Origin: Sphingomonas abietis
Lineage (GTDB): Bacteria > Pseudomonadota > Alphaproteobacteria > Sphingomonadales > Sphingomonadaceae
Reading direction: 5' to 3'
Assembly: GCF_027625475.1 (NCBI RefSeq)
Contig: NZ_CP115174.1
Span: 2,701,001-2,765,000, forward strand
DNA: 64,000 nt
Below, in pieces: positions 53,887 through 55,640 of the stretch. Position 1 is the stretch's first letter, and each line of letters opens with the position of its first letter. Both the position numbers and the translations under genes were made by a program. The notes beneath the pieces are model-generated. The model did no database searches, had not been told where the DNA came from, and saw only the letters and a list, made by a program, of their open reading frames with translations.

Positions 53887-54431
53887 TGTCCGACAATCGC
53901 CAGTCCCTTTCCGATCTCGCCACGCTGACGGGTGGCGAGGCTCCGGCCCCGGCCGCTGCGACGGATGCCGGCACCGAGGGTGGTTTCGCCCCGGTCCAGG
54001 CGCCGGTCTCGACCATGCCGCTGCGCGAGAAGATCATCGACGCCCAGGGCCGCGCCTATGCGACCGGCCGTCGTAAGGATGCGGTTGCCCGCGTCTGGAT
54101 CAAGCCGGGCTCCGGCAAGATCACGGTCAACGGCCGTGACCAGGAGGTGTATTTCGCCCGCCCGACGCTGCGCCTCGTCATCAACCAGCCGTTCGGCGTG
54201 TCCGATCGCGAAGGCCAGTATGACGTGATCTGCACCGTCGCCGGTGGCGGTCTCTCGGGCCAGGCCGGTGCGGTCAAGCACGGCATCGCCCAGGCGCTGA
54301 CCCGCTTCGAGCCGATCCTGCGCGCGCCCGTCAAGGCCGCCGGCTTCCTGACCCGCGACAGCCGCGCGGTCGAGCGCAAGAAGTACGGCAAGGCGAAGGC
54401 CCGCCGCAGCTTCCAGTTCTCGAAGCGCTAA
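53886..54431 (+). CDS. rpsI: 30S ribosomal protein S9
   Basis: A 181-residue S9. The conserved body runs from [18 protein letters not shown] to the basic end [11 protein letters not shown], whose last arginine contacts P-site tRNA. It carries an extra N-terminal stretch of about 50 residues, alanine/proline-rich and acidic ([18 protein letters not shown]), longer than the ~130-residue E. coli protein. Such extensions occur in sphingomonads. Confidence 0.97.
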
Positions 54432-54452
54432 GCTTCTCGAGCGAGCTTGCCG

Positions 54453-54487
54453 AAAGGGCGGTCCCGGACATCCGGGGCCGCCCTTTT
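54453..54487 (+). terminator. Intrinsic terminator after rpsI
   Basis: AAAGGGCGG and CCGCCCTTTT form the stem, with a CCCGG/CCGGG inner pairing, 21 bases after the rpsI stop, ending in a T-run. Confidence 0.9.
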
Positions 54488-54557
54488 GCTATGGTGCGAA
54501 GGGGATGGGGTGCGAAGGGGTGGAAAGCCGCTGCTCTTTGCCTGCCATCCTCTGATC

Positions 54558-54638
54558 GTCATCCCGGACTTGATCCGGGATCCAGAGCCGCCATCGCCGA
54601 CGCCCGAGGCTCTGGATCCTGACTGTCGTCAGGATGAC
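54558..54638. repeat. REPIN-like palindromic doublet 1
   Basis: Two short palindromes in inverted orientation. The left one has the core ATCCCGGACTTGATCCGGGA; the right one is ATCCTGAC/GTCAGGAT. The outer ends GTCATCC and GGATGAC are exact inverted copies, and the inner edges GGATCCAGAGCC and GGCTCTGGATCC are also exact inverted copies. Confidence 0.85.
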
Positions 54639-54671
54639 GGGACGTGGTGGACAGCGGTCGATCTCGGTCGC

Positions 54672-54700
54672 GTCACCCCGGGCTTGACCCGGGGTCCAGC
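54672..54700 (+). repeat. Left palindrome of a pair bracketing the GIY-YIG gene
   Basis: The core CCCCGGGCTTGACCCGGGG is a palindrome. Its outer end GTCACCCCGG and inner end GGGGTCCAGC are exact inverted copies of the ends of the element at 55031. It ends 35 bases before the GIY-YIG start. Confidence 0.85.
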
Positions 54701-54735
54701 TTGTCTTCGCTTTCCATGCGAGGATGGGAACGGAT

Positions 54736-55025
54736 ATGACGACCGGCGGCTGGGTCTACATCATGGCAGTCGTTATCGCGGCACGATCTACGTCGGCGTC
54801 ACAGCCGACCTTCGTGCGCGGGTCGGCCAGCATCGTAGCGGTGACGGATCCGATTTTTGCAGACGCTACGACCTCACTCGCCTCGTCTGGGCCGAGCGTG
54901 GCGACGACATAATGGCCTGCATCGCACATGAGAAACGGCTGAAACGCTGGCGGCGAGACTGGAAGTTTGCATTGATCGAAAGCGGGAATCCAGACTGGCA
55001 AGATCTGTTCGCCACGCTCGCCTGA
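54736..55025 (+). pseudogene. GIY-YIG endonuclease gene disrupted by a frameshift
   Basis: From ATG 54736 the frame reads MTTGGWVYIMA, then the similarity jumps to another frame at 54771: RYRGTIYVGVTADLRARVGQ, DFCRRYDLTRLVWAE, CIAHEKRLKRWRRDWKFALI, ending at TGA 55025. Together these make a ~96-residue single-domain GIY-YIG nuclease (VYI and YVG halves, catalytic arginine in ADLRARV and glutamate in AHEKRLK). One base seems lost at 54768-54770, so the two halves of the GIY-YIG motif are in different frames. It is bracketed by inverted palindromes 35 bases before and 5 bases after. Either recent decay or a sequence error. Confidence 0.82.
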
Positions 55026-55030
55026 AAGCA

Positions 55031-55059
55031 GCTGGACCCCGGCTCAGGGCCGGGGTGAC
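55031..55059 (-). repeat. Right palindrome of a pair bracketing the GIY-YIG gene
   Basis: The core CCCCGGCTCAGGGCCGGGG is a palindrome. It begins GCTGGACCCC and ends CCGGGGTGAC, the inverse of the element at 54672. It starts 5 bases after the GIY-YIG stop codon. Confidence 0.85.
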
Positions 55060-55109
55060 GAGATAATCAAATGTCCGCATCTGGGCGGAAGCCGTCATTC
55101 CATTGTTAC

Positions 55110-55196
55110 GTCATCCCGGACTTGGTCCGGGATCCCGCTTCTTCCGCGTCCAGCGGAAATCCAAGGAGCTGGACCCCGGATCAAGTCCGGGGTGAC
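55110..55196. repeat. REPIN-like palindromic doublet 3
   Basis: The left arm (55110-55138) has the core ATCCCGGACTTGGTCCGGGA; the right arm (55168-55196) is CCCCGGATCAAGTCCGGGG followed by TGAC. The arms are inverted relative to each other with 29 bases between, the same design as doublet 1 but without a gene inside. Confidence 0.85.
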
Positions 55197-55253
55197 GAGA
55201 TAGGGCGAAAGGGCGCCTCTTGGGCGAAACCCGTCGTTCCGCAACCCCTCAAA

Positions 55254-55286
55254 CCGTTCGGCCGTCGACAGGCGCAGGCCGAACGG
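55254..55286. repeat. Inverted repeat of the CCGTTCG family
   Basis: CCGTTCGGCC (55254) and GGCCGAACGG (55277) are exact inverted copies around GTCGACAGGCGCA, related to the arms at 10941 and 27000. Confidence 0.7.
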
Positions 55287-55314
55287 TGAAAGAGGAACGA
55301 ACCTCTCATCCATC

Positions 55315-55640
55315 TTGACAAATATCACCATATAGGTTACAGACCTTTCCGTCGCCCACACCCTTGATCAAGGCGCGCGGTGACAGGAGGGGATGGCGGC
55401 GGTTTCGGCCACCGTGCATCCAGCGGCCGGCGCGCCGGGCATCCGGGTGGATTCCCGCAACCCTACCGTCCACCAGGCCAGCGTGAAGCTCGCCGCGCCC
55501 GTGCCATGGGCGCGTCCGGCCCACGTCCGCCCCAACCGGGACTGCTCCACCCCAGCCGCGCAATGGCCGGGGAGTGGGAGCACAGGCCCTCGGAGGGTAA
55601 CTGAGACACCTCCAAACCCCCGCGATGCAACGAGGCACGC
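55315..55640 (+). other. Promoter-led, strongly structured region; candidate non-coding RNA of unknown family
   Basis: TTGACA at 55315 lies in unusually AT-rich sequence, with TACAGA 17 bases on. A perfect palindrome CCTTGATCAAGG follows at 55362. Downstream are several strong hairpins on the plus strand: GGTGGA/TCCACC (55447-55475), CGCGCCC/GGGCGCG (55496-55516), TGCTCC.../...GGAGCA (about 55543-55581), GGAGG/CCTCC (55593-55614) and CCCGCG/CGCGGG. No plausible protein is encoded on either strand. I do not recognise RNase P, tmRNA, SRP RNA, 6S RNA or a common riboswitch in it. It converges on prfC. Confidence 0.4.

What the first reader, a model, noticed from the sequence alone, without database searches (positions are those of the whole stretch)
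54672..55059. GIY-YIG nuclease gene enclosed by inverted palindromes: a possible mobile palindrome system
A small GIY-YIG gene lies between two copies of a ~29-base palindrome in inverted orientation, 35 bases before the start and 5 after the stop. Outer ends (GTCACCCCGG/CCGGGGTGAC) and inner ends (GGGGTCCAGC/GCTGGACCCC) match exactly. Two doublets of the same design without a gene sit on either side (54558-54638 and 55110-55196). This parallels REP/REPIN sequences spread by RAYT transposases, but with a nuclease of another class as the candidate partner. That the nuclease spreads or maintains these palindromes is inference.
Basis: partly seen in the sequence, partly recalled or inferred. Interest (0 to 1): 0.8.

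Follow-up and report, generated by a model that had tools for sequence, protein, structure and literature searches.

The report
Nuclease partner of CGTC palindromes
Small GIY-YIG nuclease genes are usually bracketed by short repeated palindromes of a kind reported to have no enzyme of their own, which makes the nuclease the best candidate for the enzyme that spreads or maintains them; the copy in this window looks broken.

Summary
A GIY-YIG gene lies between two inverted CGTC-tagged palindromes (54671-54697, 55034-55060). This copy is frameshifted; the genome holds five more units of the same kind (one internally deleted), of which one has an intact ORF. The palindromes belong to the CGTC-REP superfamily, described in 2013 as apparently lacking a dedicated transposase. 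In the host family, 87 of 108 examined GIY-YIG loci (74 genomes) have such a hairpin on both sides and 105 on at least one (displaced controls 1 and 11 of 108). Among 77 usable named loci from several phyla, 49 have both and 71 at least one. Palindrome class follows protein clade across genera and differs between paralogues in one genome. Over 149 genomes, three palindrome classes total a median of 26 copies where the nuclease is detected and 1 where it is not; 14 of 17 within-genus contrasts agree. Y1 (RAYT-type) transposases occur in 24 of 149 genomes, none in this one, and 0 of 20 tested Y1 genes are bracketed on both sides. I read this as a REP/partner system built on a GIY-YIG nuclease. 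The coupling is shown; mobilisation, probably by structure-specific cutting plus host repair, is inferred.

The parts
54671..54697 (+). left CGTC-tagged palindrome of the GIY-YIG element (class A), tag CGTC at 54671-54674
54736..55025 (+). GIY-YIG nuclease gene, frameshifted copy: ATG and first strand in one frame, the rest of the catalytic domain in another
   Evidence: intact sister copy at G000:C1:3305937-3306224 (-)
55034..55060 (-). right CGTC-tagged palindrome of the GIY-YIG element, inverted
54557..54583 (+). class A palindrome, left half of the upstream heterodoublet
54616..54639 (-). different palindrome class (TGACGNNNGTCA core), right half of the upstream heterodoublet
55109..55135 (+). 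class A palindrome, left half of the downstream 89-bp doublet
55171..55197 (-). class A palindrome, right half of the downstream 89-bp doublet
55061..55108 (.). outer sequence shared with other copies of the element and with other doublets
55198..55228 (.). outer sequence shared with the right flank of other doublets and of the GIY copy in L010

Best explanation
The feature is one broken copy of a small mobile unit: CGTC palindrome, GIY-YIG nuclease gene, inverted CGTC palindrome. Small stand-alone GIY-YIG nucleases are the dedicated partners of CGTC-tagged REP palindromes, as RAYT (HUH) transposases are of GTAG-tagged REPs. Each nuclease lineage goes with its own stem-loop sequence (shown by association). 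Most likely the nuclease recognises its palindrome as a hairpin or cruciform with the CGTC tag at its foot and cuts there. Host repair or recombination then copies the palindrome, the doublet, or the whole gene-bearing unit into a new site, so that gene-less doublets spread in trans like REPINs (inferred). Some lineages sit at one conserved locus across genera; others, as here, multiply into several copies and decay.
For: Bracketing: 87 of 108 loci on both sides, 105 of 108 on at least one; displaced control 1 and 11 of 108 (strict detector 58 and 88 against 0 and 3). Named loci from several phyla: 49 and 71 of 77, control 1 and 8 of 69. Specificity: both ends of one locus share a class in 73 of 87 (shuffled mean 16.4, maximum 28); 20 class changes on the protein tree of 103 loci against a mean of 61.2 shuffled and 37.6 shuffled within genomes (minima 53 and 30 of 300 shuffles each); nearest homologue in another genome shares the class in 82 of 103, divergent paralogues in the same genome in 6 of 84 ordered pairs; named loci 10 changes against 28.7 (minimum 25). 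Dosage. Mobility: six units of the same kind in this genome, five each in G129 and G066. Not RAYT: no Y1 match in this genome, 24 of 149 in the family, 0 of 20 tested Y1 loci bracketed on both sides. Y8, R29, E66 and N85 invariant in 42 of 42 rows. Nearest solved folds are Slx1 branched-DNA nuclease and BH0048.
Against: No transposition or cleavage was observed, and no clean empty site or target duplication was found. Sequence outside the palindromes is shared between copies, so the palindromes are not always the exact ends. GIY-YIG enzymes are not known (recalled) to rejoin strands, so a host-repair step must be assumed. Three of 44 genomes without a detected gene have 10 or more palindromes (G035, G065, G126), and 2 of 17 within-genus contrasts go the other way. 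Genomes with a sampled B-type gene but no sampled A-type gene are not clearly poorer in A palindromes (p = 0.08). Three of 108 loci have no detected hairpin (L110, L118, L127) and 6 of 77 named loci have none. The palindrome classes were defined after seeing the sequences, the protein tree is poorly resolved, and the loci are not a random sample.
Confidence: 0.74

Rival explanations
1. The GIY-YIG gene is a free-standing homing-type gene that uses pre-existing palindromes as landing sites; the palindromes are spread by something else.
For: GIY-YIG homing endonucleases are known mobile genes (passages of PMC1564403). Palindrome doublets exist without the gene.
Against: Genomes without a detected gene have few palindromes (median 1 in 44 genomes). 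The palindrome class follows the protein clade rather than the genome's other palindromes. The 14 same-class doublets listed all measure 87-91 bp. No Y1 transposase was found in this genome; other transposase classes were not searched.
Confidence: 0.14
2. The nuclease is a maintenance or processing enzyme (cruciform or hairpin resolvase) that tolerates or trims palindromes and is kept beside them; it does not move them.
For: Nearest solved folds are Slx1 branched-DNA nucleases. Some lineages stay at one locus across genera (L002 with L058, L059, L069; L004 with L077; both flanks align).
Against: Multiple similar palindrome-gene-palindrome copies at different sites in one genome indicate that the unit is mobile.
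Confidence: 0.08
3. Palindromes collect around these genes only because both sit in intergenic DNA (terminator-like or REP hotspots).
For: REPs are mostly intergenic (PMC3733652, abstract and passages).
Against: Displaced windows and Y1 genes of the same genomes are rarely bracketed (1 of 108 and 0 of 20); the displaced windows are probably largely coding, so they are an easy control. The nearest hairpins point outward on both sides in 102 of 188 loci. Class matching between ends and with clades.
Confidence: 0.02
4. RAYT/HUH transposases mobilise the CGTC palindromes and the GIY-YIG gene is a passenger.
For: A weak, not significant excess of class A+B palindromes in genomes with Y1 genes (p = 0.058).
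Against: 43 of 84 genomes with a GIY-YIG match and no Y1 gene hold 10 or more class A+B palindromes; this genome has no Y1 match; 0 of 20 tested Y1 loci are bracketed on both sides and the hairpins at 4 of 20 do not look like CGTC REPs; the 2013 survey found no CGTC-flanked tyrosine transposase.
Confidence: 0.02

Closest known systems
CGTC-tagged REP superfamily (Di Nocera et al. 2013, PMC3733652)
   Same: CGTC at one foot of a GC-rich stem-loop, CC(A) tail, inverted dimers, mostly Alphaproteobacteria, dRS3 of Neisseria included
   Different: That paper reports no dedicated transposase and, in the passages read, no link to a GIY-YIG gene; here a GIY-YIG gene sits between them
RAYT (TnpA-REP) / REP-REPIN systems
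   Same: Tagged hairpins plus a small single-domain enzyme gene flanked by them; gene-less doublets of near-fixed size; cognate enzyme-hairpin pairs; some lineages kept at one locus
   Different: RAYT is a HUH tyrosine transposase with a GTAG tag and strand transfer; this enzyme is a GIY-YIG nuclease with a CGTC tag, and some lineages are multi-copy
GIY-YIG homing endonucleases (I-TevI type)
   Same: GIY-YIG catalytic fold in a mobile unit
   Different: No second domain seen in 96 aa; bracketed by tagged palindromes; gene-less palindromes multiply as well
Stand-alone Slx1-like/UPF0213 GIY-YIG proteins (BH0048, 1zg2) and Slx1
   Same: Nearest solved relatives by sequence and fold
   Different: Invariant C-terminal Asn (N85), which PMC1564403 describes as absent in Slx1 (passage); that N85 is the equivalent position is my inference

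Membership tests
GIY-YIG nuclease superfamily | Domain match with two motif tyrosines, Arg and Glu | tested here: met
   Y8, R29, E66 invariant in 42 of 42 rows, Y19 at least 90%; AlphaFold mean pLDDT 94.3; GIY-YIG proteins lead the fold lists, though no Foldseek match reaches E 0.001. The window copy itself is frameshifted.
CGTC-tagged REPs | Unpaired CGTC at one foot of the stem-loop | tested here: met
CGTC-tagged REPs | High copy number and inverted dimers | tested here: met
   43 class A sites and 45 class D sites in this genome; 14 same-class doublets of 87-91 bp, and 12 of 13 other class A sites paired with another class (read by eye)
RAYT/REPtron | Y1 HUH transposase gene flanked by REPs | tested here: not met
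   No Y1_Tnp match in this genome
RAYT/REPtron | GTAG tag | tested here: not met
   The tag is CGTC
GIY-YIG homing endonuclease | Cuts the uninterrupted target allele, not the element | not testable with these tools
   No cleavage assay; no clean empty site found
GIY-YIG homing endonuclease | Extra DNA-binding domain such as NUMOD | tested here: not met
   Single 96-aa domain in the model; only PF01541 matched in the window ORF
Insertion sequence | Fixed ends and target site duplication | tested here: inconclusive
   Six copies share flanks of different lengths beyond the palindromes; direct repeats near TTGGGGCG seen by eye but not shown to be duplications

The most novel reading that the evidence does not exclude
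Stand-alone GIY-YIG nucleases are the missing enzymes of the whole CGTC-REP superfamily across bacterial phyla (Neisseria dRS3 included): a second, independently evolved class of REP-mobilising system that uses a sequence- and structure-specific nuclease plus host repair instead of a HUH transposase, with enzyme and stem-loop co-diversifying.
Probability: 0.66. Interest if true: 0.93.

Novelty: new variant of a known kind. Interest (0 to 1): 0.88.

Why it matters
REP palindromes are common repeats in bacteria. For the CGTC superfamily the 2013 survey stated that a dedicated enzyme is apparently lacking and left open whether RAYTs or other transposases move them. A nuclease coupled to them clade by clade, in several phyla, gives a concrete protein to test. 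It would also mean that two unrelated enzyme classes converged on the same tag-plus-hairpin parasite design. Natural cognate enzyme-hairpin pairs would be a resource for studying hairpin recognition.

Tried and rejected
RAYT as mobiliser: rejected for this genome (no Y1 match) and unlikely in general. Target-repeat idea: the conserved outer flanks looked like a separate repeat into which the elements insert. All 9 matches to the right-flank motif lie beside palindromes or doublets, and so do the 8 left-motif matches with 0-2 mismatches; of the 9 left-motif matches with 3 mismatches only 3 do, and the reversed control gives 11 matches against 17 in all. I therefore treat the flanks as travelling with the element. 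Clean empty site: the rpsI-downstream region of 9 congeneric genomes was fetched. tblastn finds a GIY relative at none of the 9 loci. For 8 of them the downstream kilobase was readable (the L250 locus is cut short) and shows no CGTC palindrome cluster, but gene content there also differs in most, so this is weak evidence of a recent insertion. Rfam gave no match for 54400-55500. The promoter/terminator scan found 0 promoters and 3 terminator-like sites against 0.9 expected, not pursued. The inverted-repeat test passes 26 of 30 loci at 16.5 or more (my notebook says 27, which is wrong; control maximum 13.0). The same test passes 16 of 18 at 16 or more, but 2 of its 18 controls also reach 16 because other copies lay in the control window; the hairpin detector replaced it. 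The detector does not flag L001; its palindromes were seen by eye.

Rows dropped or limited: the 108 family loci are a chosen part of the rows listed (which itself lists only the best matches), not a random draw; L062 and L063 were 10-base placeholders and not used. 103 of 108 could be given a class. 20 of the 26 Y1 rows were tested. Absence of the gene means no match to one query protein at E 1e-3, so divergent relatives may be missed. Class membership of a genome rests on sampled loci only; this genome's own D-type gene (L003) was not counted among the D-type genomes.

Literature: looked for GIY-YIG together with REP, RAYT, REPIN, dRS3, Sphingomonas transposon or MITE terms, in the held open-licence library only. 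Searches returned no paper; some searches returned papers whose titles and abstract starts are on other subjects (listings only, not opened). Papers read in part: PMC3733652 (abstract, outline, passages), PMC8266576 (passages), PMC8049555 (passages), PMC1564403 (passages). Gene names rplM, rpsI, prfC, sucB and lpd are recalled from the sequence and come from no call. The catalytic roles of GIY-YIG residues are recalled.

Full report
WHAT IS THERE. In the window a GIY-YIG gene lies between two inverted copies of a CGTC-tagged palindrome, 54671-54697 and 55034-55060. The right-hand doublet (55109-55197) is an 89-bp pair of the same palindrome class; the left-hand doublet (54557-54639) pairs it with a different class. 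The gene is frameshifted: its ATG and first strand are in another frame than the remainder of the domain. By sequence the neighbours are rplM and rpsI upstream and prfC downstream (recalled names).

SAME GENOME. The window lies in one 4,429,509-base contig, in which PF01541 matches ten places. The palindrome occurs 43 times with up to 2 mismatches, against 0 for the reversed control. Six palindrome-gene-palindrome units of the same kind were found (L005, L006, L008 = window, L009, L010 and the internally deleted L011). L005 has an intact 96-aa ORF; the others carry stops, frameshifts or the deletion. Fourteen same-class doublets measure 87-91 bp, and 12 of 13 other class A sites pair with another palindrome class (read by eye). 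Three other small GIY-YIG genes of this genome are flanked on both sides by other palindromes (L002, L003, L004). L001 is flanked by yet another palindrome by eye that the detector does not flag, and the UvrC gene (L007) has none. The genome has no Y1 (RAYT-type) match.

HOST FAMILY. A search of 149 genomes with the intact protein found a match in 105. For 108 loci from 74 genomes, chosen from the listed matches, a hairpin with a CGTC-like tag lies within 200 bp on both sides in 87 and on at least one side in 105. The same detector 420-620 bp away finds 1 and 11 of 108; a stricter detector gives 58 and 88 against 0 and 3. Applied to 20 of the 26 listed Y1 matches of the same genomes it gives 0 and 4. 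Over 188 loci the nearest hairpins point outward on both sides in 102, inward on both in 20.

OTHER PHYLA. Of 77 with enough flank, 49 have a tagged hairpin on both sides and 71 on at least one (control 1 and 8 of 69). The commonest palindrome type, CGTCATTCCCGC...GCGGGAATCCAG, has the form of CGTC-1/dRS3 repeats (dRS3 = CGTC-1 in PMC3733652). The Neisseria locus is one of the six that the detector scores as empty; by eye its flanks hold several such repeats, in the inward orientation or further than 200 bp.

ENZYME AND PALINDROME GO TOGETHER. I sorted stem-loops into nine classes by their inner stem and loop. The two ends of one locus share a class in 73 of 87 (shuffled mean 16.4, maximum 28). 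On the protein tree of 103 loci the class changes 20 times, against a mean of 61.2 (minimum 53) when labels are shuffled and 37.6 (minimum 30) when shuffled only among paralogues of one genome, 300 shuffles each. The nearest homologue in another genome has the same class in 82 of 103; divergent paralogues in the same genome share it in 6 of 84 ordered pairs. In the named set there are 10 changes against 28.7 (minimum 25; 62 loci). The tree has few columns and many unresolved forks, and I chose the classes after seeing the data.

NUMBERS FOLLOW THE GENE. Class A: with a GIY-YIG match, 50 of 105 genomes hold 4 or more palindromes; without, 3 of 44 (p = 5.7e-7). All 20 genomes with a close relative (E < 1e-36) hold at least 2, a count that includes the gene's own flanks. 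Class B: the 19 genomes with a sampled B-type gene have a median of 41 after subtracting the flanking pair (minimum 1); the other 130 have 1. Class D: median 25 in 9 genomes against 0 in 140, and against 3.5 in the 96 other genomes with a GIY-YIG match (p = 0.002 and 0.013). Three classes summed: median 26 in 105 genomes with the gene and 1 in 44 without (p = 3e-13); of 17 genera holding both kinds of genome, 14 have more palindromes with the gene, 2 fewer, 1 equal (sign test p = 0.002). Against: G126 (48), G065 (24) and G035 (15) carry palindromes without a detected gene; 5 of 105 genomes with the gene carry none of the three classes; genomes with only sampled B-type genes are not clearly poorer in class A (p = 0.08). 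Y1 genes do not explain the numbers (24 of 149 genomes, p = 0.058).

KNOWN AND NEW. The palindromes are known: Di Nocera et al. 2013 (PMC3733652; abstract and passages) define the CGTC superfamily, state that it apparently lacks a dedicated transposase, and found only a few fortuitous associations with transposase genes. I found no paper that links them to GIY-YIG genes, within an open-licence library only. The new part is the partner and its clade-by-clade match to the palindromes.

Noticed in passing
L001 (G000:C1:2905378-2908593): A GIY-YIG gene of another type in the same genome is flanked, by eye, by a different inverted palindrome (CGTCCCGAGCGAAGTCGAGGGAC), so a second GIY subfamily may have the same habit. 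The hairpin detector does not flag it.
   Followed up: partly
L066, L067, L085-L087 (G129) and L078-L081 (G066): Elements of two different palindrome classes in one genus share an outer motif around CTGTCAGGACACGCCGACATTGCGGAC near the palindrome, in opposite orientations (by eye).
   Followed up: partly
54557-54639 and 11 similar sites in G000: Heterodoublets that pair a class A palindrome with a TGACGNNNGTCA-type palindrome; 12 of 13 class A sites not in same-class doublets have this form.
   Followed up: partly
L163 and L178 (Hyphomicrobiales): GIY-YIG genes flanked by repeated palindromes with longer stems and loops, missed by the hairpin detector.
   Followed up: no
L152 (Neisseria gonorrhoeae): A GIY-YIG gene lies among dRS3-like repeats (by eye; not flagged by the detector).
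   Followed up: partly
55253-55287: Inverted repeat ACCGTTCGGCC ... GGCCGAACGGT between the last doublet and prfC, possibly a terminator.
   Followed up: no
54493-54504 and 54509-54520: Direct repeat GGTGCGAAGGGG, two copies with starts 16 bases apart, after the rpsI terminator-like hairpin.
   Followed up: no
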